Source of the DNA: a virus
Direction: 5' to 3' (one strand)
IMG/VR virus record: IMGVR_UViG_3300018080_000560
Location: 1-25,194 of that record
DNA length: 25,194 nt
A model generated the notes under the pieces. It did not search any database. It was not told where the DNA came from and was given only the letters and a program-made list of their open reading frames with translations. Shown piece by piece: positions 2,935 to 20,216 of this stretch (position 1 is the stretch's first letter; every line of letters starts with the position of its first letter). A program made the translations under genes and the position numbers.

Positions 2935-3102
2935 ATGAAGAAGAGCTACAGAAGGAACGTATTGCAAGTAAAATCTATATTATTTGGAATATTAGTGCTA
3001 TTAGGTGTTAGTACTTACCAAATAATAAGAATAGCAAACAGTTTACAGCAACTAGAGTTAAAGTTTGACTTATTTGAGGTTGTTGGTAAACTGTTCAATT
3101 GA
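2935..3102 (+). CDS. Small membrane protein with basic N-terminus, 55 aa
   Basis: A basic N-terminus (MKKSYRRN), one hydrophobic helix at about residues 14-31 (SILFGILVLLGVSTYQII), then an amphipathic helix (ANSLQQLELKFDLFEVVGKL). The positive-inside rule predicts the N-terminus in the cytoplasm. The stop TGA overlaps the ATG of the CheY-like receiver gene (TGATG), so the two are likely translationally coupled. The family is unknown. A small membrane protein next to a receiver is noteworthy but does not prove they work together. Confidence 0.55.
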   Translation: MKKSYRRNVLQVKSILFGILVLLGVSTYQIIRIANSLQQLELKFDLFEVVGKLFN

Positions 3103-3416
3103 TGAAAATATTGATTATTGATGATTGTTATACAATCGCGAGGCTATTAGAGTATTATTTAGAGGGGTTTGAGGTTGATATAGCGCTGTCAGGTGTTGAT
3201 GGTCTAAAGAAGTTCGATAATCACGATTTAGTCTTTGTAGACGTAAATTTAGGGGATATGAAGGGATATGACGTTGCACAGATAATATCTAAGTTCTCTG
3301 AGGTTAAAATTATAGGCATGAGTGCTTCTGCTCCTGACTCAGATGAGTTTAATTACTTCATAAGGAAGCCATTAAAGATGAAATCAATAAAAGAAGCAAT
3401 AGATTCAGTTTTATGA
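3102..3416 (+). CDS. Stand-alone CheY-like response regulator receiver domain
   Basis: A 104-aa single receiver (REC) domain with no output domain. All hallmark residues are visible: the acidic pair D7-D8 in KILIIDDC, the phospho-acceptor D47 in LVFVDVNLGDMKGYDV, the switch Ser S74 in IIGMSAS, and K89 followed by cis-type Pro in FIRKPL. REC domains take a phosphoryl group from a histidine kinase onto the conserved Asp. Length is slightly below the usual 115-125 aa, because the loop before the KP motif is short. I chose the ATG at 3102 (TGATG with the preceding gene) over an in-frame TTG one codon upstream. It presumably uses host kinases, either to sense the cell or to drain phosphate from a host pathway. 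Confidence 0.93.
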   Translation: MKILIIDDCYTIARLLEYYLEGFEVDIALSGVDGLKKFDNHDLVFVDVNLGDMKGYDVAQIISKFSEVKIIGMSASAPDSDEFNYFIRKPLKMKSIKEAIDSVL

Positions 3417-4113: not shown

Positions 4114-4635
4114 ATGAATCAACAAGAGATTTGGAAAGATGTATTAGGATACGAAGGACTTTATAAGGTATCTAATTTAGGTAGGGTAGTTTCTAAAAGA
4201 AAGATATTAAAAGGATGGGAATGTGTTAACGGATATTGGCTTTATAGATTGTGTAAAAATGGTAAAACTAGACAATTTTCAGCACATAGGTTGGTAGCAA
4301 TAAATTTCCTGCCAGCAGATCTAAATAGAAATTATGTCAATCATATAGATGGAGATAAGCTTAACAATAACCTAGATAATTTAGAGTGGTGTACCAATTC
4401 TGAAAACATTCAACACGCATATAAAATAGGACTAAAAAAATATAATAGCAATAATAGATGTCTAAATAGAGCTATTTGCAGAGATAATTTTAGCAGACTA
4501 GTAATAGACACAAGGACTGGAGTTTATTATAGCTCAATAAAAGAAGCTTCTATTTATAGTGTGTTTTCTTATTCTGCTTTAAAGGCAATGTTAAATGGAG
4601 AAAACCCAAATAAAACTAGTCTTAAAAAGGTGTAA
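4114..4635 (+). CDS. HNH homing endonuclease with NUMOD4 domain
   Basis: A 173-aa protein with clear domain order. NUMOD4 at residues 5-30 (EIWKDVLGYEGLYKVSNLGR) is a DNA-recognition module. HNH follows at about 55-105: H58 in SAHRLVA, N76-H77-I-D79 in NYVNHIDGDKLNNN, and NLEWCT. A NUMOD1-like C-terminal module covers 130-170 (DTRTGVYYSSIKEAS ... LNGENPNKTSLKKV). It would make a site-specific nick or break that promotes spread of its own gene. Start context AGTTATG. It shares architecture with the HNH protein at 1317 but only moderate identity, so the two are probably separate arrivals. It stands between small plus-strand genes with a structured segment just upstream. Confidence 0.96.
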   Translation: MNQQEIWKDVLGYEGLYKVSNLGRVVSKRKILKGWECVNGYWLYRLCKNGKTRQFSAHRLVAINFLPADLNRNYVNHIDGDKLNNNLDNLEWCTNSENIQHAYKIGLKKYNSNNRCLNRAICRDNFSRLVIDTRTGVYYSSIKEASIYSVFSYSALKAMLNGENPNKTSLKKV

Positions 4636-5780: not shown

Positions 5781-5903
5781 ATGAAAGTTACTGTAACTAT
5801 AGAGCCAGTAGCAGGATTAACAGCAGAACAAGTAGAACAAGCTAGAAAAGCTGGTAGAGAAGGAACAGATATTTACTTTAGCAAACCTGACAGCACTTTA
5901 TAA
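5781..5903 (+). CDS. Small hypothetical protein, 40 aa
   Basis: MKVTVTIEPVAGLTAEQVEQ ARKAGREGTD..., a short strand plus one helix. I chose ATG at 5781, 1 nt after the previous stop, over the in-frame GTG at 5712, because the GTG would overlap the previous gene by 68 nt, and nearly all junctions here are within 20 nt. It ends in a TAATG overlap with the large terminase gene. Function unknown. Confidence 0.55.
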   Translation: MKVTVTIEPVAGLTAEQVEQARKAGREGTDIYFSKPDSTL

Positions 5904-7243
5904 TGCCTAATATATCCTTTAGTCCAAGTCCGAAACAGCACAGAGCGTGGCAAAAACTAACAGACTCTACCACTAGGTTTGTGGGGTACGGCGGCGCGGC
6001 TGGAGGAGGGAAGTCTTGGTTAGGTGTTAATTGGCTTATAATAATGTGTTTCACCTATCCTAAAACAAGATGGGGATTGGGTAGAAAAGAATTAAAGAAC
6101 CTTAAGAGAAGTACTTTGCCTACTTTTTTTAAGGCTTTAGGTAAATACGGCATCACAGATAAGTATTACAAGTATAATCAGCAGTATGATTTCATTAGAT
6201 TCAACAATGGAAGCGAGATATACCTAGTTGACATGTCCTATAATCCTTCTGATCCTGAGTTCACTAAATTTGGAGGACTAGAACTTACAGGAGCATTTGT
6301 TGATGAGAGCAGCGAGTGTACAGAGAAGGCGATAGATATATTGTCTAAGAGGATAAGGCACATGAACAAGGAATACGGTCTTATACCGAAGGTTTTAGAG
6401 ACATTTAACCCATCTAAAGACCATGTTTATTGGAGGTATCACAAACCTGAGAAGGAAAATAGTCTTCCCGAAACATATGCGTTCATAAGAGCCTTAGTAA
6501 CAGATAATCCTGACATTGACCCTGAGTATATAAAACAGCTACAAATGGGTGATAAGGCTACGATAGAGAGATATTTCTACGGAAATTTTGATTATGACTC
6601 AGACGATTCAAAACTAATGGATTATGACTCGATCTGCTCTTTATTTACTAATACTGACGTTCCTGAAGGTGAAGGATATATCTCTGTTGACATCGCTCGT
6701 TTTGGAAAGGATGCTACCACGATATTTGTTTGGAGCGGGTGGAGGGTCGTTCACGTTGAGGTTATTGATAAAGGATCAGCAACATATACAGCTCAAATGG
6801 TAGCTCAAACAGCAGAAAGATATTCTGTGCCTAGTAATAATATAATCTTAGATGAAGATGGTGTTGGTGGTGGTGTTGTTGACGTAATGAGGACTAGAAT
6901 GCCTTCCGTGAAAGGTTTTGTATCTAATAAATCTGCGATAAAGAGAGGTAACGGTGATTTTAACTACAACAACATAAAGTCTCAATGTTATTTCATGCTA
7001 TCTAAATTCGTAAACGAGGGTAGAATTTATTTCATGCCTAAAGATACAGACGTAAAACAGAAGCTAATACAAGAGTTGGAGGTTGTTAAGAAGAAGCATG
7101 TAGATAAAGACGGTAAAAACATGGTTCTACCTAAAGAAGACGTTAAAAACATAATAGGGAGATCTCCTGACTACTCAGATGCCTTAATGATGCGCATGTG
7201 GTTCGAGCTAGGAAGAAATGAAACAAAAATTGATTGGTTATGA
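5903..7243 (+). CDS. terL: Terminase large subunit
   Basis: A 446-aa DNA-packaging motor with both required domains. The ATPase part has Walker A at 28-38 (GYGGAAGGGKS), Walker B at about 130-136 (GAFVDES, D134-E135) and the coupling motif ETFNPS near 166-171. The RNase H-like nuclease part has acidic residues D263 (YISVDIARFGKD), D317/D319 (IILDEDGVGGG) and D423/D426 (SPDYSDAL). It pumps genome DNA into proheads through the portal and cuts the concatemer at the end. Length is normal. The start is a TAATG junction and the stop TGA overlaps the next ATG. The portal is 13 kb downstream, which is unusual. Confidence 0.97.
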   Translation: MPNISFSPSPKQHRAWQKLTDSTTRFVGYGGAAGGGKSWLGVNWLIIMCFTYPKTRWGLGRKELKNLKRSTLPTFFKALGKYGITDKYYKYNQQYDFIRFNNGSEIYLVDMSYNPSDPEFTKFGGLELTGAFVDESSECTEKAIDILSKRIRHMNKEYGLIPKVLETFNPSKDHVYWRYHKPEKENSLPETYAFIRALVTDNPDIDPEYIKQLQMGDKATIERYFYGNFDYDSDDSKLMDYDSICSLFTNTDVPEGEGYISVDIARFGKDATTIFVWSGWRVVHVEVIDKGSATYTAQMVAQTAERYSVPSNNIILDEDGVGGGVVDVMRTRMPSVKGFVSNKSAIKRGNGDFNYNNIKSQCYFMLSKFVNEGRIYFMPKDTDVKQKLIQELEVVKKKHVDKDGKNMVLPKEDVKNIIGRSPDYSDALMMRMWFELGRNETKIDWL

Positions 7244-7989
7244 TAAAGATAAAGGTACAAGACAAGGAATACGATCTAATTAACGATTGGAGTGAGCTAA
7301 CTATACAGAAATTCTTAGAAGTACAGAGAATCTGCGATAAAGCACCTGAAAAACTAAAGAAATTAATAGGACACGTCTATTTTGGAGAGAAAGATGAGAT
7401 TGAGAAGATGAATTTCTCCAATAGAGAGCAATTAAAGACGTTTCCTAAGTTCTATGGGGATATACTACTAGAAATGTCAGATGTGCCAAAGGAAGTCGTT
7501 AAAACAATGGATTTCGAGTCAAGAGTAATTCATTTCAACAATCATTTAATAAAATTCGTTATAGGATGCTTATTTGCGCCTGTTGACATTCCCGAAATCT
7601 CAAATGACAGCTTTAAATTTGAAGGTGAAACTTTTATATTACCTAAATCTAGGAACGTACTAGGTAATGAAAGACCTATGGGATATATTTCTACTATTCA
7701 ATTTACTGAATCTGCTGATTTAGATATTTATATGAGAGATTTGGACGACAAAAACTATGGCGTTCTTGCTAACATTATAGCTATCTTATGTTTAAAAGAA
7801 GGCGAGGAGTATGATGAAGATGTCTGTTTAAAGCGAGCAGAGAAATTCAGAAACCTAACTATGGATATTGCATGGGATGTTTTTTTTTACTTGGACGAAC
7901 TGTTAAATACGTACACGAAAGCTACCCTCAGCTCTTCTCTGGAAAAAATCAAGCTAAATACGCAAGTTTCGCTAGGACGTCAGGATTGA
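7240..7989 (+). CDS. Tail assembly chaperone-like protein (zero frame)
   Basis: 249 aa from ATG 7240, which overlaps the terL stop (ATGA); an in-frame TTG two codons upstream is less likely. It starts MIKIKVQDKEYDLINDWSEL TIQKFLEVQRICD, a style seen in Bacteroidetes phage proteins thought to act as tail assembly chaperones, with a 'WxELTxxxFLxLQxI' opening. Its position upstream of the tape measure gene and the frame-switch site in its 3' part (T9 at 7880-7888) fit the chaperone pattern, as in lambda G/GT. No enzyme motif is visible. It could instead be a conserved structural protein of other function. The last 34 codons after the slip site overlap the -1 frame. Confidence 0.6.
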   Translation: MIKIKVQDKEYDLINDWSELTIQKFLEVQRICDKAPEKLKKLIGHVYFGEKDEIEKMNFSNREQLKTFPKFYGDILLEMSDVPKEVVKTMDFESRVIHFNNHLIKFVIGCLFAPVDIPEISNDSFKFEGETFILPKSRNVLGNERPMGYISTIQFTESADLDIYMRDLDDKNYGVLANIIAILCLKEGEEYDEDVCLKRAEKFRNLTMDIAWDVFFYLDELLNTYTKATLSSSLEKIKLNTQVSLGRQD

Positions 7990-8183
7990 ACGGTTTCGGT
8001 TGGTATTTGCAAATAAAATCAGTTGCGGAGAAAGGAGTGTTCACTTTTGGCAACAATTCAGGCATAAAAAGCGTAGAAAAGACTAATCTTTACGACTTTT
8101 TGACATATATAGCTGCAAACGCCTCAGAAGCGTTGTACCAAGAGAAAATAAGAGAACATGAATCTGGAAGAACTAGTAGATAA
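7872..8183 (+). CDS. -1 frame extension of the chaperone-like gene
   Basis: An ORF in the -1 frame relative to the preceding gene, overlapping it by 118 nt. Reading enters it naturally by a -1 shift at T-TTT-TTT (7881-7887), giving a 314-aa fusion: 216 residues of the zero frame followed by 98 residues (LLGRTVKYVHESYPQLFSG... to HESGRTSR). The region KYASFARTSGLNGFGWYLQI ... NLYDFLTYIAAN looks like the conserved end of this protein type, so it is more likely an extension than a separate gene. An independent start at ATG 7872 is possible but would sit deep inside the first gene. A sequencing error in the T run would look the same. Confidence 0.6.
   Translation: MGCFFLLGRTVKYVHESYPQLFSGKNQAKYASFARTSGLNGFGWYLQIKSVAEKGVFTFGNNSGIKSVEKTNLYDFLTYIAANASEALYQEKIREHESGRTSR
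7880..7888 (+). promoter_or_regulatory. Slippery T9 sequence for -1 frameshift
   Basis: Nine consecutive T. In the zero frame they read GTT-TTT-TTT-TAC, so 7881-7887 is the heptamer T-TTT-TTT, a valid X-XXY-YYZ slip site with full re-pairing in the -1 frame. After slipping, reading continues in the 98-codon open frame that ends at 8183. I did not identify a convincing downstream pseudoknot by eye. Confidence 0.6.
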
Positions 8184-8847
8184 AATAGAGCTAATCACAA
8201 CAGATGCTCCGAATATAAATACATTCTTGTTTGATGATTTAGAAACAATCAATGAGCTACACGCTACAAGTTATCCAATACTATTGCTAACTCCTACAGA
8301 GGATGAAATAGACCCTAGAGCAAATGAGCAAGATTACAATCTTATCATTTACTTAATGGATACTTATTTTCAAGATGATTCAAAGACATTAAGACAAAAG
8401 TACTCTGATATGCAAGATTGGGGTATTAGATTAGTAAATGAGTTACTAGATGATCCTAACATTAGAGATGTTGGTAATGTTTCCGTTACTAGAGGTCAAG
8501 AGAGATTCAATGACGAACTTGCGTTAGTTCAGTTCTCATTTACTGTAAGAGTGTATCACTGCCTAAAGCTATTAAAGAAGCCTACTAGTCTGACAGCAAC
8601 AACTGTAAGTTCTTCACAAATAGACTTAACTTGGACTGATGTTGCATCTGATGAATCGAATTACGAGATTTCTAGGAGTCTTGATAATGAAACTTGGACT
8701 ACTATTGCTACAATTGCTGCTGATAGCACTTCTTATAGCGATACAGGTCTTGATCCTAGCACTCTTTATTACTTCCGTATTAGGGCAACCACAGCCAGTA
8801 ATAGATCCGCTTATTCAAACACTTCCTCTGATACAACGTCTGCTTAA
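8158..8847 (+). CDS. Tail-terminator-like protein with C-terminal FN3 domain
   Basis: 229 aa in two parts. Residues 1-135 (MNLEELVDKIELITTDAPNI, LLLTPTEDEIDP, YNLIIYLMDTYFQDDS, DVGNVSVTRGQERFNDEL ALVQFSFTVRVYH) have the alternating pattern of small phage tail-completion or terminator proteins. Residues about 141-227 are a clear fibronectin type III domain (KPTSLTATTVSSSQIDLTWT with W159, then NYEISRSLDN, YSDTGLDPSTLYYFRIRA). FN3 and Ig-like domains are often hung on phage virion proteins and may bind host surface sugars. It starts 26 nt inside the preceding frame and ends TAATG with the next gene. Confidence 0.68.
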   Translation: MNLEELVDKIELITTDAPNINTFLFDDLETINELHATSYPILLLTPTEDEIDPRANEQDYNLIIYLMDTYFQDDSKTLRQKYSDMQDWGIRLVNELLDDPNIRDVGNVSVTRGQERFNDELALVQFSFTVRVYHCLKLLKKPTSLTATTVSSSQIDLTWTDVASDESNYEISRSLDNETWTTIATIAADSTSYSDTGLDPSTLYYFRIRATTASNRSAYSNTSSDTTSA

Positions 8848-9395
8848 TGGCTTTTGATTGGTTACATACTAGATATGCCACAGGAGTCTTTGTAAGGAGA
8901 TTAAGAAAGGAGATGGCTAAAGAGCTACAAGATCAAGGTCATGTTGCTTCAGGAAGGTTATTGAATAGTTTAAGCACAGGCACAAAGCAAACAAAAGGCA
9001 AGGTGCAGGGTGTTGTTCGTGGTTTAGCTAGAGGAGAAGCATTAGATGGATACCAAAGAGACGCTAACCTAACTATAAGAAAGATTCTAACATGGATGGA
9101 TTTAGTTAATGCTACGGGCAGAAACAGATTCGATTTTAAAGACATGAAGGAAAAAAGGAGAATAGCCTTAGCAATATTAAGCGCTTCTGTAGATCAAGGT
9201 ATTCCAATGAGAGGTGCTGCGAAATACTCTAACAACGGGACAAGAGTAGGATGGATAACTACACCATACAGAAATAACTTAAAGTTTGTCGATAAAGATG
9301 TAGTACCTAAAGTAGTTCAAGACATTGAGGAGAACTTCATTAGAATAATAGAAGCGATGGCAGCAAAAAACCCTAACATAAAACTAATAAAGTAA
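8847..9395 (+). CDS. HK97 gp10-like neck / tail-completion protein
   Basis: A 182-aa basic protein. The N-terminal helix and the segment VASGRLLNSLSTGTKQTKGK VQGVVRGLARGEALDGYQRD have the 'xSGxLxxSl' signature of the HK97 gp10 / neck protein group, which closes the head-tail junction. A small family of this kind usually has 130-190 aa, so the length fits. The C-terminal half is helical. It lies between the tail-terminator-like gene and the large tail genes, as expected for a joining protein. Both boundaries are TAATG overlaps. Confidence 0.65.
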   Translation: MAFDWLHTRYATGVFVRRLRKEMAKELQDQGHVASGRLLNSLSTGTKQTKGKVQGVVRGLARGEALDGYQRDANLTIRKILTWMDLVNATGRNRFDFKDMKEKRRIALAILSASVDQGIPMRGAAKYSNNGTRVGWITTPYRNNLKFVDKDVVPKVVQDIEENFIRIIEAMAAKNPNIKLIK

Positions 9396-10657
9396 TGGCA
9401 ATAACATTAGATTCACAACCAACGGCAAGCATACTCCATAGTCCTTATAGACCTATGGAGATTAAAGTCAGTTCTAATGATGGTGATGTAGCTAAAATGA
9501 AGTGTTTTATTCATTTAGACAATAGTGCTACTGCTGACAACGCAAATAATCCTATTATATTAGATCCTGACTTCGGAACGACAGATGAGTTTACATTTGA
9601 CATTGCAGGATACATTGCAGGATTAGATACTTTAACTAGCACTACGCAAACTGCTGACGTAGCAATCTCAGCAATAGATGCAGATACTAACTCAATAAAA
9701 ATGATTACTTGCTCTTTTACTGAGTTATTAGATGTAGGTGGTGCAGGCACTCTATCTGACGGAGCTAGTTTAGCTTATACTTCAGTATCAGATTGGTACG
9801 CTATAAACGGAGTGTGGGCTTACGATGAGGTATCAGATAAGTTTAGTGGGTTTGAGATAAAATCAACAGGAGATAAACAGTTCCTAACAAATAAGAGAGG
9901 AACAGCTTATAGAGAGATTGCAACAGATGAATCAGATTATTTAAGTGGGTTTTCCCCAAGTGAGACAACTGTTTACTTTAGATTAAAAACCTTTACTGAG
10001 CCTAATTTGGGAGGTTCTAGTACTATTTACTTCTATGAATTAGATTTAACTGGTATTAGAAGATTCGACTTACCATGTGGATCGTCAAACATTAACGCAA
10101 GTGGAGGCACTTGGTATGATGAGTTCGGGTCTTCAACAACAGCTCCCACTATTGATTCTAGCATAGGATCTTACACAGTAAGGATTGATGATGGTAAAGT
10201 AGAGGCTACTAACTCAACTAGAAGTGAGGTTGTTAGGTATAACGTTAGTTCTGTATGTGGAGATAGCACAAGAATAAAATTCTTAAACAGATTAGGAGCT
10301 TTTGAGTACTTCACGTTCAAAGGATACAGAGATAAGAGTGTAAGTATTAGAAAGAATTACTACAACAGACCTTTATCGGGTTCTTATTCTATAGGGGAAG
10401 GAGGAGATAGAGTATTAAGTACAGACAGTAGAACTGGGTTTGTAGTTTATTCTCAGCAATTATTGCAAGCAGATAGAGAATGGTTAATTGAAATGCTTGA
10501 AGGGCATGAGGCTTTTGTTGAAGAAAACGGTAATTCTATTCCTATCAAAATAAGAGCAGGAGGTACAGAGATTATAAAAGAGTCTGATGGTTTAATGACT
10601 ATTAAGATGACATACGAATACGCAAATCCAAACAGAAGACAGCATGGCGGATATTAA
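9395..10657 (+). CDS. Large structural tail protein, family of unknown name
   Basis: A 420-aa, beta-rich protein without signal peptide or membrane segment. The first 120 residues (MAITLDSQPTASILHSPYRPMEIK...) have a thin-strand pattern. The C-terminal part contains IKFLNRLGAFEYFTFKG, a 'FLNrlGgfeyFtFkG' motif that recurs in tail-region proteins of Bacteroidetes phages, then REWLIEMLEGHEAFVEENGN and a strand-rich end. The gene sits immediately before the 1121-aa tail protein and two genes before the tape measure, so it is likely part of the tail tip or distal tail. It overlaps the next gene by 14 nt. Confidence 0.65.
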   Translation: MAITLDSQPTASILHSPYRPMEIKVSSNDGDVAKMKCFIHLDNSATADNANNPIILDPDFGTTDEFTFDIAGYIAGLDTLTSTTQTADVAISAIDADTNSIKMITCSFTELLDVGGAGTLSDGASLAYTSVSDWYAINGVWAYDEVSDKFSGFEIKSTGDKQFLTNKRGTAYREIATDESDYLSGFSPSETTVYFRLKTFTEPNLGGSSTIYFYELDLTGIRRFDLPCGSSNINASGGTWYDEFGSSTTAPTIDSSIGSYTVRIDDGKVEATNSTRSEVVRYNVSSVCGDSTRIKFLNRLGAFEYFTFKGYRDKSVSIRKNYYNRPLSGSYSIGEGGDRVLSTDSRTGFVVYSQQLLQADREWLIEMLEGHEAFVEENGNSIPIKIRAGGTEIIKESDGLMTIKMTYEYANPNRRQHGGY

Positions 10658-13600
10658 GATAACATTAGTAGGATTAGAGAAGGATTTAGATGCACCACAA
10701 GGTAGGCAATTCCCTTTATCTCTAAATTTCTCTGCTGGTAGTTTAACTAATATAGATGCGAGATCAACAGACTACTCTCTGTCTTTTAGGATACCAGCGA
10801 CTAGAAACAATAAAAGTGCATTAGGGCATTTTGACTCGTCTAACATGTCAGATCAAGACACTTACCTAGCAAGTCAAGATTGTGTTGTAAAGGTGGATGG
10901 GTATCCTATATTCACAGGGAAATTCAAGTTGTTAGGATTTGTTAACGATAGAGGTTTCGAAGAGTTCAACTGTATTATACTTGGTTCAGGAATGGATTGG
11001 GTAGAGGGGATGAAAGATAAGACGTTACAGGATTATACTTGGGGGTCTACGCTTACATTCGATAAGGCAAGTGTAAAAACATCTTGGAGTAATACATATA
11101 CAGATGGTTATACTTTCCCATTAGTTAATTATGGAGCATGGAAGAATGTAAACAACGTAACTGTTGATGATCTACGTCCTGCTGTGTTCGTTAGGGCATT
11201 ATTTGAAGAAGCATTTAATTCAGAGGGATATACAATTCAATCAGACACAGATAGCGATGATTTTTTTCATACTTCTAATAATCCGATTGCGGACAAACTT
11301 ATATTGCCGTTTACTGGAAAGAACTTCACAGATTCTTCAATAGTAACAGCACAAACATTCTACGCAACTGAAACTAACGCTCAAGAATGGGGATCGGTAA
11401 CAAAAGTTCAGCATAGTGGGTTTATTGGTAAGCCTGTTATAGGTAATGGATCTACTTCTACTCCATCCGCAAAAGAAGCGGTATTAGGATCTTTTGGTAC
11501 GACTAATACGTCTGCCTGTGGTAGGCTATTCTTAGATGGCTCAGGCGCAGCTTTAAGCTCTGTTAGTGATTGGACTAATTTATATTTATATATTGATTCA
11601 AATAATACAACTATATCGTGTCCGACAGGTAAGGTATTCAAGGTTGTAAATTACGGGACAACGACAGCTCCATCTGGGTTAGGATACGGTACTGTTGAGT
11701 TTATTGACTTCTTAGGACAAGACGGTGTTAGAGCTGAGGTAAATCCGCGAAACTTCTCAGGAGACGGTCAAGCTAATATTACAAACGTAAAGTTAGCTTT
11801 CTTAAATGCAGGATGGGAAGATGCTCAAGAACTAACTATAAGTTCTGCACCTACAAACCCTAGTAGCATATTTAATACGTCTACGTATAAATACACAGCA
11901 ACAGAAGCAACAAGAGCTAAGTTTAAATTCGATGCGGAGGCTTATTCGTGGGACTCTTGGGGAGCAAATAAAGGAACGCTTACATTTAGAATAAGACATA
12001 AGACAGGATCAACAAACTCTACTAGAGGTTCTGAAACATTTAACCCTACTGATACATCTCCTATTGATTCTTACATAACTAAAACTATATCACACCCATT
12101 CACAGGGTCAGCAACGGATGATGCTTCTATAATTCCTGTTGGTTTTGAATCGGGAGCTATTGATTTAGCTGTAGGTGATGAAGTGTGGGTAGATGTAGTA
12201 GTACAACATGAGAGTTCATCCCAAGCAAACAGCATACTAAAAACAGGTAACGAAGGAGATCAGATTACAACTGCTTTTGGAGTTAGAAACTTAGAGTTTA
12301 AATCTATACCCGAAGACACCATCATTAAAGGAAAGACTTCTTTAGACGTTTCTACTGTATTAGATGATAGATTCAAAGTTTTAAGTTACATCAAAGGGTG
12401 TATTCATGCTTTTAACTTAATGATAAAAACAGACCCTTATTCTAAGAAGGTTATCATTAAAACAAGAGACAACTTCTATGATACCAACAGTAATGCTATT
12501 GATTGGACTAACAAGGTAGATTTGAAGAAACAGTACTTGATTGAGTACTTAGATATGTATAAAAAGAAATTAGAGTTTAAGTTTATAAAGGATTCAGCAG
12601 ATGGACACGTTAATCAGTTGAATGATATTAGAAATTTTGATTTAGGTTCTTACAGAGAAGATATAGGAGATAGATTTGAAGACGGTAAATCGGACTTTAA
12701 GAACCCTATCTTTGCTTATTCCTACCCTATAGTCGATAGATCTATTTTAGCGACTTACAGTGGAGCTAAGACAGGTTCTCAGGTGTCAGGTATTTACATG
12801 GCTAGAATGTGGAACACGTATAATGCTAATTCTGCACCACCTGCACCTTTTTACAATTATAGACCTAGATTATTGATTTTTGATTATAAGGCTCAAGCAA
12901 CAGAGAACGGATGGAAATGGGAAGGCGATACTGAATTAAAAGTACCTGCCGCAATGACTCAGGACTTTGGTTCTCTTACATTGAATAATTTTGACTTGAA
13001 TATATCTTATGGTAACTCGAATACTGATGGCTCAAATGTAGAGGAAGGATTAGTTGCTAAGTACTATCAAAAGACTATTAGTACAATTGAGAAGGGAACT
13101 AAGGTTTCTATACCTATGAATCTTACTTTTAGAGATATTCAAACTTTTGATATAACTAAGCCTATATACTTAGAGTATCCTGCTAACTTAAGAGGTTATT
13201 GGATAGTAGATAAGATTAACGGGTATAGTCCAACAACTAATGTTACTACTCAGGTAGATTTAATAAAGAAAGAGGACTTCACTACTAGAACACAAAACAC
13301 AGATAGAGATGTAAATCTTGAGTCAGATGGTGAAGAGTACAGCAAACAAACAGGAGACGGTCAAGGAGATAGAGACGGTGCTGGTGGAGTTTCAAAAGCA
13401 GACGCGGAACATGAAGTTGATACTACATTCCAAAAAACAGCAACAGAATTAGGCGGTGCTAAAGGAACTGGTGGCTCAAGTGGTGGCTCAGGTTCAGGAG
13501 ATAGCAGGTTTGATAGAACACCTTCAGGCTCTTCTAGTAAATTAGCTACACAGTCTTCTCAAGACGAGGATGCTAAAGAAGACTCAAGAGAGCAAGGTAG

Positions 13601-14009
13601 ATCGGAATCTTGGACGAATGACAAAGGAGTAGAAGGTGCTGAAAGAGAAACAGACTTAAATAAGAAGCCTGACCAAGACTTCCCTGCTGACGATGGTAAA
13701 TCTAAATCCTTAGTTCAACAAGGAAGTGGAAACAGCACAAACAAAGGTTCAGGGAACTTCGTTACAGGTTCAGGAAACAAGGGGACAGGGAAAAACCAAA
13801 CTGTTGTAGGACAAAATAATAAACCTAAACAAACAGATGTATTCCAAGTAGGTACTGGAACAAGCGACTCAGAAAGACATACAGCATTATCTGTTGGTAA
13901 TGACGGTGTAGTAAGAGAAGGCGGGGGTACTATTGTAGAAGAAACAGACTCAGGTATATCCCCTGTATATGAAGAAGTTAATGGTGAAATGGTTAAAATA
14001 ACAATATAA
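10644..14009 (+). CDS. Very large tail protein, tail tip or hub candidate, 1121 aa
   Basis: The largest gene in the window. The N-terminus (MADIKITLVGLEKDLDAPQG, DARSTDYSLSFRIPATRNNK) has the 'yS.sF.iP.T.nN' motif of Bacteroidetes phage tail proteins. Residues about 1-870 are globular and beta-rich with repeated W/Y/F strands. From about residue 872 to the end the sequence becomes low-complexity and rich in G, S, T, D, N and Q, with SGGSGSGD, NSTNKGSGNFVTGSGN and VVGQNN stretches, like a flexible stalk or fibre attachment. Its place between the FLN-motif protein and the tape measure suggests the tail tip, perhaps the hub that holds host-binding parts. The exact role is inferred from context. 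Confidence 0.65.
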   Translation: MADIKITLVGLEKDLDAPQGRQFPLSLNFSAGSLTNIDARSTDYSLSFRIPATRNNKSALGHFDSSNMSDQDTYLASQDCVVKVDGYPIFTGKFKLLGFVNDRGFEEFNCIILGSGMDWVEGMKDKTLQDYTWGSTLTFDKASVKTSWSNTYTDGYTFPLVNYGAWKNVNNVTVDDLRPAVFVRALFEEAFNSEGYTIQSDTDSDDFFHTSNNPIADKLILPFTGKNFTDSSIVTAQTFYATETNAQEWGSVTKVQHSGFIGKPVIGNGSTSTPSAKEAVLGSFGTTNTSACGRLFLDGSGAALSSVSDWTNLYLYIDSNNTTISCPTGKVFKVVNYGTTTAPSGLGYGTVEFIDFLGQDGVRAEVNPRNFSGDGQANITNVKLAFLNAGWEDAQELTISSAPTNPSSIFNTSTYKYTATEATRAKFKFDAEAYSWDSWGANKGTLTFRIRHKTGSTNSTRGSETFNPTDTSPIDSYITKTISHPFTGSATDDASIIPVGFESGAIDLAVGDEVWVDVVVQHESSSQANSILKTGNEGDQITTAFGVRNLEFKSIPEDTIIKGKTSLDVSTVLDDRFKVLSYIKGCIHAFNLMIKTDPYSKKVIIKTRDNFYDTNSNAIDWTNKVDLKKQYLIEYLDMYKKKLEFKFIKDSADGHVNQLNDIRNFDLGSYREDIGDRFEDGKSDFKNPIFAYSYPIVDRSILATYSGAKTGSQVSGIYMARMWNTYNANSAPPAPFYNYRPRLLIFDYKAQATENGWKWEGDTELKVPAAMTQDFGSLTLNNFDLNISYGNSNTDGSNVEEGLVAKYYQKTISTIEKGTKVSIPMNLTFRDIQTFDITKPIYLEYPANLRGYWIVDKINGYSPTTNVTTQVDLIKKEDFTTRTQNTDRDVNLESDGEEYSKQTGDGQGDRDGAGGVSKADAEHEVDTTFQKTATELGGAKGTGGSSGGSGSGDSRFDRTPSGSSSKLATQSSQDEDAKEDSREQGRSESWTNDKGVEGAERETDLNKKPDQDFPADDGKSKSLVQQGSGNSTNKGSGNFVTGSGNKGTGKNQTVVGQNNKPKQTDVFQVGTGTSDSERHTALSVGNDGVVREGGGTIVEETDSGISPVYEEVNGEMVKITI

Positions 14010-16600
14010 TGGCAACGAATAAGAAGATATTTATAGAGATAGTTACTAAAACAAGTGGCGCAGAAAAAGGATTAGATAATGTAGGAAACGCTGCTGATAA
14101 GTCGGGAAAGAAAGCAGATCAAGCAAGTAAGTCATTTTTAGGATTAGGAAGAACATTTACTGCAATAGCAAGAGGATTTGTTATTGTTAAGTCTTTTCAG
14201 TTGTTGGCTCAAGCGATAGGAGGTGCAGTAAAAGTTAGCGCGGACTTTGAGTTAGCTATGAACAAGGTTAAAGCAACAACAAAAGCCTCAACACCTGAGT
14301 TTAATAAGTTAAAAGCTGCTGCAAGAGAATTAGCTTTAGGGACAATGTTTACCGCAACGCAGGTGTCTGAGCTTCAATTAGCTTATTCTAAGTTAGGTTT
14401 CACAACTCAAGAGATCTTAGATGCAACAGACGCGACCTTAGACTTAGCAACAGCAACAGGTGAAGACTTAGCTAGTGCAGCAGATGTTGTTGGTTCTACT
14501 ATTAGAGGTTTTAATTTAGACGCTGTTGAAGCAGGTCGGGTTGCTGATGTTATGGCTGCTTCATTCACTTCTAGTGCATTAAATTTAGAGAGCTTTAAGC
14601 AGTCAATGAAAACGGTTGCTCCAATCGCTAACGCTGCGAATATTAGCTTAGAGACAACTACAGCAATGCTTTCTGTTTTAGCGGATTCTGGTTTAAGAGG
14701 CACAAGAGCAGCAACAGGATTGAAAAACTTAATGTCTCAATTAGTTGATCCTTCATCTAAGTTAGCGAAGGAACTAGGTTTCACAATAAATAATGCTGAA
14801 GGAGCTACTATTGCTTTTAGAAAACTTTCAGAAAGTAATATAGACTTAGCAAAAGCAACAAAATTAACAGACAAACGATCGTTAGCCGCATTTGCTACAT
14901 TCTTAAAAGGAACAGACGCTTTAGAAAAGTTAAATAAGTCTTATAAAGATGTTAAGGGAGCGTCAAAAGAAATGGCAGATGTTGTTGAGGATAGTGTAAG
15001 TATAAAATTAGATAAGTTTTTCTCCGCTATAGAAGTTTTCGCAGAATCTAATAGTGGGGCATTACTTGTTTCAATAGGAAGGTTATTAGATGAAATAACA
15101 GAGTTTATAAATTCAACTGACCCAGCTCTAAAAATAATAAAAAAGGCAGACACAGTAATGAAGGAGTTTACTGATGGAGTGGATTTAGCCGAAGTATCCA
15201 CTGGTAAACTAAAAAACAAAATAAATGAATTAAAAGAATCTAATGAAGGGTTAAAAACAAGTATTGAAGATCAAAAGTCTCCTTTAGATGAAAGGAATGA
15301 GTTAATAGCTAAATCATTCGAGTTAGCTCAAAAAGGTCAGAATTTAAATATATTAGAATCTACAAGATTAGAAGAGCTAAATAAACAATACGAATCAGGA
15401 GCGGCAGTGATGAAAGACAATACTGCGGAGAAGAATGTAAACAATGATACTTCAAAAGAGCAAATTAAGGTTAACGACAAGGTGATTGCTCAATTAGAAA
15501 AAGAGATAAAATTAAGATCATTAAAGAAAACTGATTCTGAAGACCCTATTTCTCCTTTAAGTGATACATCAAGTTTAGACTTAACTGCCGCAGCTGCTAC
15601 TGCCGCTACAAACGCTGTTGCAGGATATAATGATGAAATGGCTAAAATGGCTTCAATGGAAGTCCCTACAAAACACATGACAGGCTTTGAGATGCTTGGA
15701 GACTCTATATTAGCTATATTTGATAAGGAAGATCAATTAAGAGCAGCGCAAGATACTTTAGCGTCTTTTAATGATTTGTTTCAGGTTACACAACAAAATA
15801 GGTTAAATGATCTTGTAATTGCTAACGACAACGCGATGCTTTCTTTGCAACAAACCAATGACGAAGCAATGGCTAGATTCGATATAGACCAACAACATGA
15901 ACTTGAGTCTTTTGTAGGAACACAACAACAGAAAGCAGACTTTGAAAGACAAAACTCTTTAGAAAGATTAGAAAAAGAGAAGGAGCTAAGAAACGCAGAA
16001 GAGGCTTTAAGAAAAAAACAATTAAAAGAAGAAAATAAAATAGCGCAGAAAGCATTTAGAGTTAATAAGGCAAATGCGATAGCAGATATAGCAATAAACA
16101 CAGGTATAGCTGTTGCTAAACTTTGGGGGCAAACAGGAGTTGGTGCGCCAGTTATTATTCCTTTACTATTAGCCTCTGCTGCTGCTCAGAGTGCTTCTGT
16201 TGCTGGGCAAAAATATCAGCCTAAGACATTTGAAGAAGGTGGTGCTATTAACGGTCCAAGTCATTCAGAAGGTGGTGTTCCTTTTACTGTTGCTGGTCGT
16301 GCAGGATTCGAAGCAGAAGGTGGAGAGTACATGTTCTCAAGAAAGACAGTAGATAGATTAGGTACAGGATTATTAGATGCAATTAACTTCGGTGGTGCTT
16401 CTCCTAGACTGTTTGCTGATGGTGGTGTAGTTAGTGCTTCATCTGTCTCACAGAATGCTTTCGGAGGAATGGAAATGGCTGAAATGATTGGTGGTATCAT
16501 AGCTCAAACTGTTACCGAAATCCCTGTTGTGAATGTTGCAACAGACACGTTCAATGCAAGCAGATCGGTACAATCAGCACAAGATATGGCATCTTTCTAA
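14009..16600 (+). CDS. Tail tape measure protein
   Basis: 863 aa. Residues about 75-260 carry the typical tape-measure core (ADFELAMNKVKATTKASTPE, ELALGTMFTATQVSELQLAY, AADVVGSTIRGFNLDAVEAG, MAASFTSSALNLESF, SVLADSGLRGTRAATGL), as in the TP901-type family. Charged helical regions follow (390-470 and about 620-690). Then come a hydrophobic helix (GAPVIIPLLLASAAAQSASV) and the usual glycine-rich end with FEEGGAINGPSHSEGGVPF and EAEGGEYMFSRKTVD. It sets tail length and is ejected first into the cell membrane. By the usual 0.15 nm per residue rule the tail would be near 130 nm. Starts at TAATG; followed by an 80-nt gap with a palindrome. Confidence 0.95.
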   Translation: MATNKKIFIEIVTKTSGAEKGLDNVGNAADKSGKKADQASKSFLGLGRTFTAIARGFVIVKSFQLLAQAIGGAVKVSADFELAMNKVKATTKASTPEFNKLKAAARELALGTMFTATQVSELQLAYSKLGFTTQEILDATDATLDLATATGEDLASAADVVGSTIRGFNLDAVEAGRVADVMAASFTSSALNLESFKQSMKTVAPIANAANISLETTTAMLSVLADSGLRGTRAATGLKNLMSQLVDPSSKLAKELGFTINNAEGATIAFRKLSESNIDLAKATKLTDKRSLAAFATFLKGTDALEKLNKSYKDVKGASKEMADVVEDSVSIKLDKFFSAIEVFAESNSGALLVSIGRLLDEITEFINSTDPALKIIKKADTVMKEFTDGVDLAEVSTGKLKNKINELKESNEGLKTSIEDQKSPLDERNELIAKSFELAQKGQNLNILESTRLEELNKQYESGAAVMKDNTAEKNVNNDTSKEQIKVNDKVIAQLEKEIKLRSLKKTDSEDPISPLSDTSSLDLTAAAATAATNAVAGYNDEMAKMASMEVPTKHMTGFEMLGDSILAIFDKEDQLRAAQDTLASFNDLFQVTQQNRLNDLVIANDNAMLSLQQTNDEAMARFDIDQQHELESFVGTQQQKADFERQNSLERLEKEKELRNAEEALRKKQLKEENKIAQKAFRVNKANAIADIAINTGIAVAKLWGQTGVGAPVIIPLLLASAAAQSASVAGQKYQPKTFEEGGAINGPSHSEGGVPFTVAGRAGFEAEGGEYMFSRKTVDRLGTGLLDAINFGGASPRLFADGGVVSASSVSQNAFGGMEMAEMIGGIIAQTVTEIPVVNVATDTFNASRSVQSAQDMASF

Positions 16601-16617
16601 TTTTTTTATAGAATAGT

Positions 16618-16633
16618 GTATACTTTAGTATAC
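16618..16633. promoter_or_regulatory. Palindrome in the gap before the head genes
   Basis: GTATACT-TT-AGTATAC, a perfect inverted repeat with 7-nt arms, in the only real gap (16601-16679) between tail and head genes. It contains TACTTTAG (16622-16629), a five-of-six match to the Bacteroidetes -7 element TAnnTTTG. It may be an operator or part of the promoter for the capsid operon; a terminator is unlikely because no T tract follows. Confidence 0.4.
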
Positions 16634-16679
16634 AAAATGACGTATAAGGATATATATTGTATAGAAAAATAGACAGTAA

Positions 16680-17813
16680 ATGAAATTTAGATCAGACGTA
16701 TGTTTCTCAAATTCAAGCTTAGACGCTGTTGACGAACATGCAGGAGTTATAAAAGGAGTGACGATTGCAAGGGAAGGTATTGCAAAAGGTCATGGAGTGT
16801 TTTTAGATTCAGAATTTATATCAAAAGTTGCACAGCTAGGTAACGAAGCAGAACAAGGCGTTAAAGTAAGATTTGGACACCCTAACATGTGTTCGGACGC
16901 TTTAGGAACATACTTAGGAAGGTTTAAAAACTTTAGAGTTGTTGAGGACAAGGTTTATGCAGATTTACACATGGATGAAGTGGCTAAGAAGTCTCCTAAC
17001 GGGGATTTATACAGCTATGTATTTGCTATGGCACGTTCTAATCCTGATATGTTTGGTAACAGCATTGTTTTTAGAGCTGGTGAGTCGAGATTTGAAGAGG
17101 AAATGGGAGAAAACGAAGAAGTAATCAAGAAAGAATACACTTCTATTGTTGCTTTACACGCTTCTGATCTAGTGGATACGCCTGCTGCTACTGAATCTTT
17201 ATTTTCTTCTGACATGAGTTCTGCAAAGATTACTCAATTCTTACAGGAGAATCCTGAAATCGAGGAATTACTGTTTAACACACCTGACATTGACAGGGTT
17301 GTTGAGCAATTCAAGAATAGATATGAAAATTACAAATCAAAAAAGAACAAAATGGAAAAATCATTTAGTGAAAAAGTAAAAGACGCTTTAGTTTCTTTCG
17401 GATTAATGTCAGAGAACGCTGAAGAGTCTAACGTAGCTGAGGTAGAATCAAATGAAGAGACTCCTGTAGCTGAAGAAGCTCCTGCTGTAGAAGAACCAAA
17501 AGAAGAGTTTTCAAACGAGGAGGCAACAGAAGCAATGGAGCAAGCTGTTGAGAAGTTTGAGGAAGAAAAAGAAGAGTTAACTAAGGCTTTTGATGCAAAA
17601 GAAGCTGACTTAAATCATGCTTTAGCTGAGTTAGGAGAAGAAGTTAAGTCTTTAAAAGCTGAATTAGATTCAAAACAAGCTGAATTAGATGCTTTATCTG
17701 CTAAACCAACTGAATTAGAAGGTGAAGCTGATGCTAACATCACAGGTGAGGAAGCTAAGTTAAGCTCATCTCAAGAGGCTTTAATGGCATACTTAAAAGA
17801 GATTAAAGGATAA
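16680..17813 (+). CDS. Head maturation protease fused to scaffold
   Basis: 377 aa. The N-terminal half (about 1-180) is protease-like: VKVRFGHPNMCSDALGTYLG with candidate His H67, RFKNFRVVEDKVYADLHM, MARSNPDMFGNSIVFRA with candidate Ser S128, and ALHASDLVDTPAATESLF. This fits a prohead protease that trims capsid and scaffold. The C-terminal half (from about residue 225) is acidic coiled coil (EEA-rich repeats, then KEADLNHALAELGEEVKSLK AELDSKQAELDALSAK) and would be the scaffold for capsid assembly. An in-frame ATG at 17352 with an A-rich upstream could make the scaffold alone, as with lambda C/Nu3. It precedes the capsid gene, in keeping with its role. Confidence 0.83.
   Translation: MKFRSDVCFSNSSLDAVDEHAGVIKGVTIAREGIAKGHGVFLDSEFISKVAQLGNEAEQGVKVRFGHPNMCSDALGTYLGRFKNFRVVEDKVYADLHMDEVAKKSPNGDLYSYVFAMARSNPDMFGNSIVFRAGESRFEEEMGENEEVIKKEYTSIVALHASDLVDTPAATESLFSSDMSSAKITQFLQENPEIEELLFNTPDIDRVVEQFKNRYENYKSKKNKMEKSFSEKVKDALVSFGLMSENAEESNVAEVESNEETPVAEEAPAVEEPKEEFSNEEATEAMEQAVEKFEEEKEELTKAFDAKEADLNHALAELGEEVKSLKAELDSKQAELDALSAKPTELEGEADANITGEEAKLSSSQEALMAYLKEIKG
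17352..17813 (+). CDS. Possible nested internal start for scaffold alone
   Basis: In-frame ATG at 17352 (residue 225 of the protease gene), preceded by an A-rich stretch (AAATCAAAAAAGAACAAA), gives a 153-residue protein starting MEKSFSEKVKDALVSFGLMS. It covers all of the acidic coiled-coil scaffold and none of the protease. This mirrors known nested scaffold genes. It is inference from the domain boundary and start context only. Confidence 0.35.
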   Translation: MEKSFSEKVKDALVSFGLMSENAEESNVAEVESNEETPVAEEAPAVEEPKEEFSNEEATEAMEQAVEKFEEEKEELTKAFDAKEADLNHALAELGEEVKSLKAELDSKQAELDALSAKPTELEGEADANITGEEAKLSSSQEALMAYLKEIKG

Positions 17814-17829
17814 ACTAAATTAAGCAATT

Positions 17830-18000
17830 ATGAAAATCAAATTCGTCAAAGACGGTAAAGAAATCGAGGCTGAGATTCCTGAGTCTGATTTCAAACACTT
17901 CGAAGAGAAGTATGAAGCAAAAAAGGTTGGAGGTTCTGCACCTAAAAAAGCTGCACCTAAGAGGTCAGCAAAGAAAGAAGAACCAAAAGAAGATAAATAA
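17830..18000 (+). CDS. Small protein with basic/acidic K-A-P-E tail, 56 aa
   Basis: Residues 1-32 (MKIKFVKDGKEIEAEIPESD FKHFEEKYEAKK) look like a small ubiquitin-like or beta-alpha fold. The tail (VGGSAPKKAAPKRSAKKEEP) is a disordered charged linker. A very similar tail (SAPKK) ends the gene at 20024, even at DNA level (GCACCTAAAAAAG). The position directly before the capsid gene suggests a capsid accessory or head-completion protein. Start context AATTATG. Confidence 0.65.
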   Translation: MKIKFVKDGKEIEAEIPESDFKHFEEKYEAKKVGGSAPKKAAPKRSAKKEEPKEDK

Positions 18001-18030
18001 TAATTTTTAAACAAAACAAATTTTTAAGAA

Positions 18031-19380
18031 ATGGCTGATTTAATGTCACATGCTCTTAGTTTCTCAAAAGAATCAATTAGAGAGTATTTTATCAAACCAA
18101 TGTTCGTTCAATCGGACATCAGAGACATCGTAACTGTAAGAACAGATATCAAGAACTCTGAAAAATTAGACTTCATTGACAACTTAGACAAGATTACTAA
18201 GGCTTATGCTCAAGGTACATCTTTCACAACTTCAACTGGAGTAACAATCACTCAGAAGACTTTACAAGTTTCTGACATGAAAGCTGAGATCGCTCAAAAC
18301 GGTAAAGCGTTCTTAAACTACGTAAAAGAGTCTTTATTGGCTAAAGGTGTAGATGAGAATGATATCGCTAAAGGTGATGGATTATTCGAGCAAATCGCTA
18401 TGGAAATTTACATGGCTGGTTTAGCTAGAGACTTCCAAAGACAAATCTTCTTCGGAGATGTTGTTAAAGAAGACATCGTTTCTGGTGTGCCTGATGGTTC
18501 TTTAGATGCTGACTACAAAGAGTACGATGGATTCTGGACTAGAATCATTGATGCTTTTGATGCTTCTACAATTCCTGCTGCTCAGTACTTAGACTTAAAC
18601 TCTTCTACTTACCAAACTACTGTTGCGGTAAAAGAAGTTGATACAGTAACTTTAACAGGGACTTCAGGAACAGCTAACGTTAATATCAACGGAGTAGACT
18701 ACTTAGCTACTTTCGATACTGACTTAACTACTACTGCTGCTAACTTCGTAACATCTCACGCTGCTACTATTTTAGCTAGATTCGGTAAGATTGTTGTTAC
18801 TTCTTCTGGAGCTGATATCATCGTTACTGCTGGTGTTGCTGGTATGGCTCAACAAGATCCTACAGCTACTAACGTGTCAGGAGATTTAGCTGGTACTAAC
18901 GCTAACACTACTGCTAACGTTGCTAACACAACTTTAAAGACAGATGCTTCTTTAACTGCTTTCAAAGCGTTATGGTCTAAGATGCCTGCTTCTTTAAAAG
19001 GATTAATGCAGAAAGAAGGTAAGATTATGGTTACTGGTTCTGTTGCTGATAACTACATCGACACTATCGAAGCATTGAATGGTTCTGACGCTGCTTACTT
19101 CACTTTAAGAGATGGAGAAAAAGTTAAGGCTTTCAGAGGTATTCCTGTTATCGAAAGAATCGAGTGGGATGAGCATATCGAGGATGACTTCGCAAGTGTA
19201 AGACCACACAGAATCTTATTCACTATTCCTAGAAACTTAGTTGTAGGAACAGATGGAATTTCTGACGACACTAAAGTAGAGTCTTGGTATGAGATCTTAA
19301 CTCAAAATAGACATATGAGAGTTGAGTACAAGGCTGGTACACAATATATTCACGAGGACTACATAGTTGCTGCTTACTAG
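18031..19380 (+). CDS. Major capsid protein
   Basis: 449 aa with an HK97-fold capsid pattern: N-terminal arm and E-loop-like region (MADLMSHALSFSKESIREYF, TKAYAQGTSFTTSTGVTITQ), a P-domain helix region with MEIYMAGLARDFQRQIFFGD (127-143), and a C-terminal end with KVKAFRGIPVIERIEWDEHI and VGTDGISDDTKVESWYEILTQNRHM. Residues about 203-290 appear to be an inserted threonine- and alanine-rich beta domain (TVTLTGTSGTANVNINGVDY ... DIIVTAGVAGMAQQ). Codon use differs from neighbours, with more C-ending codons (TTC, TAC, AAC, GAC, ATC), as expected for a highly expressed protein. It follows the protease/scaffold gene and is followed by a terminator, typical for the main head protein. Confidence 0.92.
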   Translation: MADLMSHALSFSKESIREYFIKPMFVQSDIRDIVTVRTDIKNSEKLDFIDNLDKITKAYAQGTSFTTSTGVTITQKTLQVSDMKAEIAQNGKAFLNYVKESLLAKGVDENDIAKGDGLFEQIAMEIYMAGLARDFQRQIFFGDVVKEDIVSGVPDGSLDADYKEYDGFWTRIIDAFDASTIPAAQYLDLNSSTYQTTVAVKEVDTVTLTGTSGTANVNINGVDYLATFDTDLTTTAANFVTSHAATILARFGKIVVTSSGADIIVTAGVAGMAQQDPTATNVSGDLAGTNANTTANVANTTLKTDASLTAFKALWSKMPASLKGLMQKEGKIMVTGSVADNYIDTIEALNGSDAAYFTLRDGEKVKAFRGIPVIERIEWDEHIEDDFASVRPHRILFTIPRNLVVGTDGISDDTKVESWYEILTQNRHMRVEYKAGTQYIHEDYIVAAY

Positions 19381-19397
19381 TATATTCTTTATCATCG

Positions 19398-19424
19398 GGG
19401 AGTGACTTCGGTTGCTCCCTTTTA
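19398..19424 (+). terminator. Intrinsic terminator with UUCG tetraloop after capsid gene
   Basis: GGGAGTGAC (19398-19406), loop TTCG, GTTGCTCCC (19411-19419): nine pairs including two G-U, closed by C(UUCG)G, an ultra-stable tetraloop, followed by TTTTATT. It would limit read-through from the capsid gene into the tail tube gene, giving more capsid mRNA than downstream mRNA. Confidence 0.9.
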
Positions 19425-19448
19425 TTAAACATTTAAAATTTAACAATT

Positions 19449-19970: not shown

Positions 19971-19977
19971 TCCATTT

Positions 19978-20008
19978 AGGGGAGGGATAAAACTCCCCTT
20001 TTTATTTT
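19978..20008 (+). terminator. Intrinsic terminator after tail tube gene
   Basis: AGGGGAG (19978-19984) pairs with CTCCCCT (19993-19999), loop of 8 nt (GGATAAAA), followed by TTTTATTTT. It lies right after the stop of the 173-aa gene and before the next ATG, so the tube gene is a short, high-output unit. Confidence 0.88.
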
Positions 20009-20023
20009 CTATAAACAATTATT

Positions 20024-20206: not shown

Positions 20207-20216
20207 AAGTCTTTAG

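What the first reader, a model, noticed from the sequence alone, without database searches (positions are those of the whole stretch)
7872..7989. Probable programmed -1 frameshift at a T9 run in a tail chaperone-like gene
Seen: the zero frame reads GTT-TTT-TTT-TAC and the heptamer T-TTT-TTT (7881-7887) leads exactly into a 98-codon open -1 frame; the two frames overlap by 118 nt. Known: tail assembly chaperones of many phages are made as short and long forms by -1 shifting upstream of the tape measure gene. Inference: a 249-aa short form and a 314-aa long form. The relevant gene sits directly after terL, an unusual place.
Basis: partly seen in the sequence, partly recalled or inferred. Interest (0 to 1): 0.58.

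Follow-up and report, generated by a model that had tools for sequence, protein, structure and literature searches.

The report
Conserved T9 frameshift in phage gene
In a family of uncultured tailed phages, a run of exactly nine T's joins two overlapping reading frames of one gene, very probably so that part of the protein is made in a longer form; the same trick is known from phage tail-assembly genes, but this gene family is unnamed and sits in an unusual place.

Summary
Nine T's at 7880-7888 read GTT-TTT-TTT-TAC in the zero frame (ATG 7240 to stop 7989, 249 aa); a -1 shift at T-TTT-TTT (7881-7887) enters a 98-codon open frame ending at 8183 (314-aa fusion). It is not an assembly error: 9 of 9 contigs carrying the gene, from five lineages down to 36-38% identity in the shared region, keep T9 in the same codon phase with a homologous -1 frame. 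In the most distant (L029) the -1 frame has no ATG, GTG or TTG from its upstream stop to 60 codons past the slip. In the overlap the -1 frame is under purifying selection; the zero-frame tail hardly is, and its length varies. No RNA structure was found just downstream. Ribosomal slippage and RNA-polymerase slippage would give the same protein and cannot be separated here. "Tail chaperone" remains an inference: no family, solved-structure or significant fold match supports it, and the gene is not next to the tape-measure gene. Separately, 38 nt (8064-8101) inside the -1 frame lie in the longest or second-longest exact match between lineages, have hairpin potential, and are unexplained.

The parts
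5903..7243 (+). terL, terminase large subunit, directly upstream (its stop overlaps the ATG at 7240)
   Evidence: PHROG terminase 1.2e-28, PF04466; ORF
7240..7989 (+). zero-frame ORF, 249-aa short form; the first 216 codons (7240-7887) are shared with the fusion
   Evidence: conserved in 8 other contigs
7880..7888 (+). T9 run, the slip site
   Evidence: exactly T9 in the same phase in 9 of 9 contigs
7881..7887 (+). heptamer T-TTT-TTT in the codon phase for tandem -1 ribosomal slippage
   Evidence: read; phase checked
7887..8183 (+). -1 frame extension, 98 codons plus stop (from ATG 7872 if counted as an ORF)
   Evidence: homologous in all relatives; under purifying selection in the overlap
8064..8101 (+). 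38-nt near-invariant block inside the -1 frame with hairpin potential; role unknown
   Evidence: exact in four lineages, synonymous sites frozen, fold z -2.95 as a 42-mer; absent from L029
8158..8847 (+). next gene; N-terminal part possibly a tail terminator (by eye), C-terminal fn3 domain in the window
   Evidence: PF00041 1.1e-10; N-terminal part matches no family
14009..16600 (+). tape-measure gene, four genes further on
   Evidence: PHROG tape measure 5e-56

Best explanation
The gene at 7240-8183 encodes one protein in two frames. Translation in the zero frame stops at 7989 and gives a 249-aa form. A part of the output enters the -1 frame at the T9 run and gives a 314-aa form with a different, conserved C-terminal domain. 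The change of frame happens either by tandem slippage of two tRNA-Phe on U-UUU-UUU or by RNA polymerase adding one U on the T9 template; both give the identical fusion. SHOWN: site, phase, open frames, conservation over five lineages, selection on the -1 frame in the overlap, no ATG/GTG/TTG for the -1 frame in L029. INFERRED: that the shift happens, its level, and that the two products act like the lambda gpG/gpGT pair (shared N-terminal part, extra domain on some copies) in tail assembly. The confidence given is for a programmed frame transition; for the tail-assembly role alone I would say 0.5.
For: T9 in the same codon phase in 9 of 9 contigs, five lineages. Homologous -1 frame in all, down to 32% identity. 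L029's -1 frame has no ATG, GTG or TTG from its upstream stop to 60 codons past the slip; L017 has only TTG before it. In the overlap the -1 frame has fewer amino-acid changes than random placement (P 0.07, 0.0015, 0.0005, 0 of 2000, 0.0005, 0.0020 for six pairs). Long runs are rare in these genomes (1 run of 8 or more against 4.45 expected in the window; T9 is L029's only A/T run of 7 or more). U_UUU_UUU is listed among motifs shifting above 0.10% without stimulator in E. coli (passage of PMC4066793). Tail role: gene block includes the tape measure, and no small overlapping ORF pair stands next to the tape-measure gene in the window.
Against: No stimulatory RNA structure downstream in five lineages (z 0.28 to 1.50, i.e. 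weaker than shuffles), no conserved Shine-Dalgarno-like element seen by eye. U_UUU_UUU is described as much less shift-prone than A_AAA_AAG in E. coli (passage of PMC5009743). No RNA or protein data. For the chaperone role: no family or structure match, position after terL, and the zero-frame end weakly constrained (P 0.56, 0.10, 0.31, 0.023, 0.20, 0.11).
Confidence: 0.88

Rival explanations
1. The transition is made by RNA polymerase: slippage on T9 yields mRNAs with one extra U (among others), which ribosomes then read without shifting. This differs from ribosomal slippage in mechanism only and is contained in the best explanation.
For: Slippage on runs of 9 A or T in bacteria is reported (passage of PMC5009743). 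No downstream structure. All nine T's are kept although seven suffice for the heptamer. Flavobacterium phage 11b, with a related terminase, has an A9 run between two ORFs joined in the -1 sense.
Against: The two outer T's are partly fixed by the amino acids they encode (Val in the zero frame; Leu or Phe in the -1 frame), so nine rather than seven is weak evidence; the codon phase fits the ribosomal heptamer exactly.
Confidence: 0.45
2. Two separate overlapping genes: the -1 ORF starts at its own ATG (7872) and makes a 103-aa protein; the T run is only a by-product of dual coding.
For: ATG at 7872 in the window and at the same place in 7 of 9 contigs. Dual coding would itself tend to hold the T's.
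Against: TTG instead of ATG in L017, and no ATG, GTG or TTG at all in L029 up to 60 codons past the slip. The -1 frame upstream of 7872 has no conserved role.
Confidence: 0.08
3. Assembly or sequencing error, or a decayed gene: the true sequence has ten T's, or the -1 half is dead.
For: Homopolymers are error-prone (general knowledge).
Against: Exactly nine in 9 of 9 records with distinct metagenome names; -1 half conserved under selection.
Confidence: 0.02
4. The short form is not a functional partner: the fusion is the working protein, the slip site is a tolerated or rate-setting interruption, and the protein may act in head-tail completion rather than as a tape-measure chaperone.
For: Zero-frame tail weakly constrained and of different length in L017 (261 aa) and L029 (310 aa). 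The gene is not next to the tape-measure gene.
Against: If only the fusion mattered, a one-base change would remove the interruption; none of 9 contigs has done so. The end of a short form need not be conserved for the short form to work.
Confidence: 0.3

Closest known systems
Phage lambda gpG/gpGT and the G-T tail assembly chaperones of long-tailed phages
   Same: One gene, two products with a common N-terminal part; -1 transition near the end of the first ORF; second ORF open only in the -1 frame; AT-skewed slip site in the right phase.
   Different: No sequence or significant fold match; shared part 216 codons; directly after terL and four genes before the tape measure instead of between major tail and tape-measure genes; slip site is a bare T9. 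(Lambda features from passages of PMC5009743; its gene position partly recalled.)
Presumed G/T-like ORF pair of Flavobacterium phage 11b (L012 17855-18528) and of Cellulophaga phage phi10:1 (L013 23846-24557)
   Same: Two overlapping ORFs joined at a homopolymer run (A9 and A8); in 11b the second ORF follows a TAA directly and lies in the -1 frame.
   Different: Lie just before the (annotated or presumed) tape-measure gene; no evident sequence similarity by eye; phi10:1 is in the +1/-2 sense and its second ORF has an ATG. Not annotated as frameshift genes in these records; my reading of the sequence only.
Bacterial transcriptional-slippage genes (e.g. Thermus dnaX, Shigella spa13, IS elements)
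   Same: A run of about nine A or T gives two frames from one gene without structured stimulators (passages of PMC5009743).
   Different: Not shown here at the RNA level; here the codon phase also fits ribosomal slippage.

Membership tests
[quoted passage not shown]
   9 of 9 contigs; (sequence level; the shift itself is not measured)
G/GT-type phage tail assembly chaperone | Gene directly upstream of the tape-measure gene, after the major tail protein gene | tested here: not met
   directly after terL; four genes (8158, 8847, 9395, 10644) lie before the tape measure at 14009; same order in L002
G/GT-type phage tail assembly chaperone | Sequence match to a known chaperone family | tested here: inconclusive
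   no chaperone family in Pfam, PHROGs or NCBIfam for the window protein, nor in Pfam or PHROGs for L017 and L029; known chaperones diverge greatly, so absence is weak
G/GT-type phage tail assembly chaperone | Fold of the N-terminal part | tested here: inconclusive
   residues 1-111 modelled at block pLDDT 72-89; chaperone-labelled viral models only at E 0.68, 1.0 and 1.9
G/GT-type phage tail assembly chaperone | Binds the tape-measure protein; absent from virions; needed for tails | not testable with these tools
   needs experiment
-1 programmed ribosomal frameshift | Heptamer X_XXY_YYZ in the zero-frame phase | tested here: met
   T_TTT_TTT at 7881-7887, same phase in 9 of 9 contigs
-1 programmed ribosomal frameshift | Stimulatory downstream structure or upstream Shine-Dalgarno-like element (common, not obligatory) | tested here: not met
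   no structure better than shuffles in 80 nt downstream in five lineages; no conserved SD-like element by eye
Programmed transcriptional slippage | A or T run of about nine or more | tested here: met
   T9 in 9 of 9 contigs
Programmed transcriptional slippage | mRNA length heterogeneity at the run | not testable with these tools
   no RNA reads held

The most novel reading that the evidence does not exclude
This is an undescribed tail-assembly factor family whose frame transition rests on a bare T9 run, probably by RNA-polymerase slippage, in a phage group where homopolymer runs (A9 in 11b, A8 in phi10:1, T9 here) take the place of classical ribosomal signals; and the near-invariant 38-nt hairpin block at 8064-8101, 176 nt after the run, is a remote cis-element acting on this gene or the next.
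Probability: 0.12. Interest if true: 0.65.

Novelty: new variant of a known kind. Interest (0 to 1): 0.42.

Why it matters
If right, it adds a frameshift gene family that the family libraries used here do not recognise and that gene callers would split into two overlapping ORFs. It also gives a clean test case for whether phages of this kind make two-form proteins by polymerase slippage on homopolymers rather than by ribosomal signals. The near-invariant 38-nt block is an unexplained constraint that can be tested in the same construct.

Tried and rejected
Assembly error: rejected, T9 in 9 of 9 contigs. Independent start of the -1 ORF: mostly rejected on L029 and L017. Downstream stimulatory RNA structure: none in 5 lineages; the 301-nt fold of 7860-8160 is less stable than its shuffles (z 1.20). 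Pairing between the slip region and the 38-nt block: no better than shuffled blocks in 4 lineages. Rfam: one sub-threshold match, E 2.7. tRNA: none in the window. Named phages: no match for the shared part, the -1 part, L029's shared part, or the genes at 9395 and 10644. Bacterial and archaeal genomes: no relative in two scans. Solved structures by sequence: none for the shared part; five rows at E 0.4 or worse for the -1 part. The -1 ORF model is poor (mean pLDDT 53.8) and was not searched. Zero-frame model: no PDB match at E <= 0.001; VIA-align best Z 4.6, on low-confidence parts, taken as noise. Viral Foldseek: five matches at E <= 1e-3, all unnamed or uncharacterised. NCBIfam gave a proline iminopeptidase row far under its cut-off (19.6 of 500 bits), taken as chance. 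The long form was not folded: no reading of the DNA under the folding tool's stated rules gives it.

Caveats: L001-L004 are near-identical to one another, as are L010 and L011, so 9 contigs are 5 lineages. The overlap test used four representatives (window, L001, L010, L017), not L029. The 38-nt block was noticed before it was tested (post hoc); one search used the same four. Pattern-based searches of the viral collection find only relatives that share short peptides, so relatives with an intact frame could have been missed.

Literature: searches; I saw their listings, passages of PMC5009743, PMC3711429, PMC10885494, PMC4615864 and PMC4066793, and the abstract and outline of PMC6149199. None of what I saw describes this gene; most subscription papers are not held.

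Full report
WHAT IS THERE. The zero frame starts at ATG 7240, overlapping the terL stop, and ends at 7989 (249 aa). At 7879-7890 it reads GTT-TTT-TTT-TAC; T's occupy 7880-7888. Slipping back one base on T-TTT-TTT (7881-7887) leads into TTA-CTT-GGA and an open frame to 8183; the fusion is 314 aa. All numbers in the finding check out. The run is the only homopolymer of eight or more in the window, where shuffles expect 4.45.

RELATIVES. Searches of the viral collection with both halves gave eight other contigs: L001-L004 (one lineage), L010/L011, L017 and the distant L029. Against the window the zero-frame protein is 69-70%, 58% and 61% identical in the first three lineages; L029 is 38% (alignment) or 36% (tblastn) identical in the shared part and 32% in the -1 part. 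All nine contigs, window included, have exactly nine T's in the same codon phase and a homologous -1 frame. L029 is a different genome: 42.6% GC, a terminase that looks different by eye, no other A/T run of seven or more in 7.8 kb. Yet it reads GAG-GTT-TTT-TTT-TCT, and the -1 frame continues with the conserved core. With each lineage's codon use, keeping GTT-TTT-TTT in all five by chance has a product of about 2e-4 (values; product mine).

IS THE -1 FRAME REACHED BY A SHIFT? In seven of nine contigs there is an ATG in the -1 frame eight bases before the run; in L017 it is TTG. In L029 there is no ATG, GTG or TTG from the upstream stop to 60 codons past the slip. So initiation at ordinary start codons cannot serve the whole family.

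WHICH FRAME IS SELECTED IN THE OVERLAP? I placed the observed substitutions at random among sites with the same base (four representatives, six pairs, L029 not included). The -1 frame has fewer amino-acid changes than random (P 0.07, 0.0015, 0.0005, 0 of 2000, 0.0005, 0.0020). The zero frame does not, or hardly (P 0.56, 0.10, 0.31, 0.023, 0.20, 0.11). The zero-frame stop is at the same place in three lineages, but the product is 261 aa in L017 and 310 aa in L029. So the fusion is constrained; the end of the short form is not clearly so.

HOW IT WORKS. Two routes give the same protein: tandem tRNA slippage on U-UUU-UUU, or an added U during transcription. For the first: exact codon phase, and the motif is listed among those shifting above 0.10% without stimulator in E. 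coli (passage of PMC4066793). For the second: nine T's, a length at which bacterial transcriptional slippage is reported (passage of PMC5009743), and no stimulatory structure. The two outer T's are partly fixed by the amino acids they encode, so run length does not decide. I put the two routes near even.

WHAT THE PROTEIN DOES. The model of the zero-frame protein is a beta-hairpin with helices for residues 1 to about 111 (block pLDDT 72-89); the rest is not modelled with confidence. No family library or solved structure names it. Fold matches at E <= 1e-3 are five unnamed viral proteins; chaperone-labelled rows appear only at E 0.68-1.9. By place, it opens a block running terL, frameshift gene, a possible tail terminator (by eye) carrying an fn3 domain, a possible connector (by eye), a 420-aa gene, a 1121-aa gene, tape measure, then protease-like and capsid-like genes (by eye) and the portal gene. 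The frameshift gene and the next three genes appear in the same order in L029 (apart from the frameshift gene, likeness was judged by place and by eye). With no small ORF pair next to the tape-measure gene, a G/GT-like role is the best guess, at about even odds.

COMPARISON. Named phages with related terminases have the portal gene (11b, phi10:1, Versailles) or a long unannotated gene (P12002L) after terL, not this gene. Flavobacterium phage 11b has, just before its presumed tape-measure gene, two ORFs joined in the -1 sense at an A9 run, the second entered right after a TAA; phi10:1 has a pair overlapping at an A8 run in the +1/-2 sense, whose second ORF does have an ATG. These were seen by reading the sequence and were not tested further.

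A SECOND FEATURE. 8064-8101 is identical in four lineages. Over the DNA fetched for these genomes it lies in the longest exact match in most lineage pairs: longest in 4 of 6 (window-L017, window-L010, L002-L010, L010-L017) and second longest in 2 of 6 (window-L002, L002-L017). Of amino-acid-invariant degenerate codons, 12 of 13 are identical there, against 6 of 25 in the rest of the single-coded -1 frame (P = 8e-5) and 21 of 75 in the shared region (P = 1.7e-5; post hoc). It folds better than shuffles as a 42-mer (z -2.95; only z -1.02 in a 61-nt context). All 7 viral contigs with the exact 28-nt core carry this gene. It shows no pairing with the slip region beyond chance and only chance-level matches in named phages. 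Local recombination between lineages could explain part of it: the flanks are also unusually alike between L001-L004 and L017.

VERDICT. A real, conserved, programmed frame transition (about 0.9 that it is programmed rather than two genes or an error); ribosomal or transcriptional undecided; chaperone role plausible, not shown.

Noticed in passing
8064-8101: 38-nt block identical in four lineages, with frozen synonymous sites and hairpin potential, inside the -1 frame; longest or second-longest exact match between these genomes. Role unknown.
   Followed up: partly
3099-3416: Small phage ORF with a response-regulator receiver domain (PF00072, E 1.1e-12).
   Followed up: no
1317-1826 and 4114-4635: Two HNH endonuclease ORFs (PF13392; the second with NUMOD4), probably free-standing homing endonucleases near the terminase gene.
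   Followed up: no
5903-21539: Unusual gene order: terL, frameshift gene, tail genes and tape measure come before the capsid-like and portal genes; portal at 20217 is far from terL.
   Followed up: partly
8575-8847: fn3 domain at the end of the gene after the frameshift gene (PF00041); no fn3 found in the 143-aa gene in the same place in L029.
   Followed up: no
L012 18173-18181 and L013 24219-24226: A9 in Flavobacterium phage 11b and A8 in Cellulophaga phage phi10:1 between overlapping ORFs just before the tape-measure position; not annotated as frameshifts in these records.
   Followed up: partly
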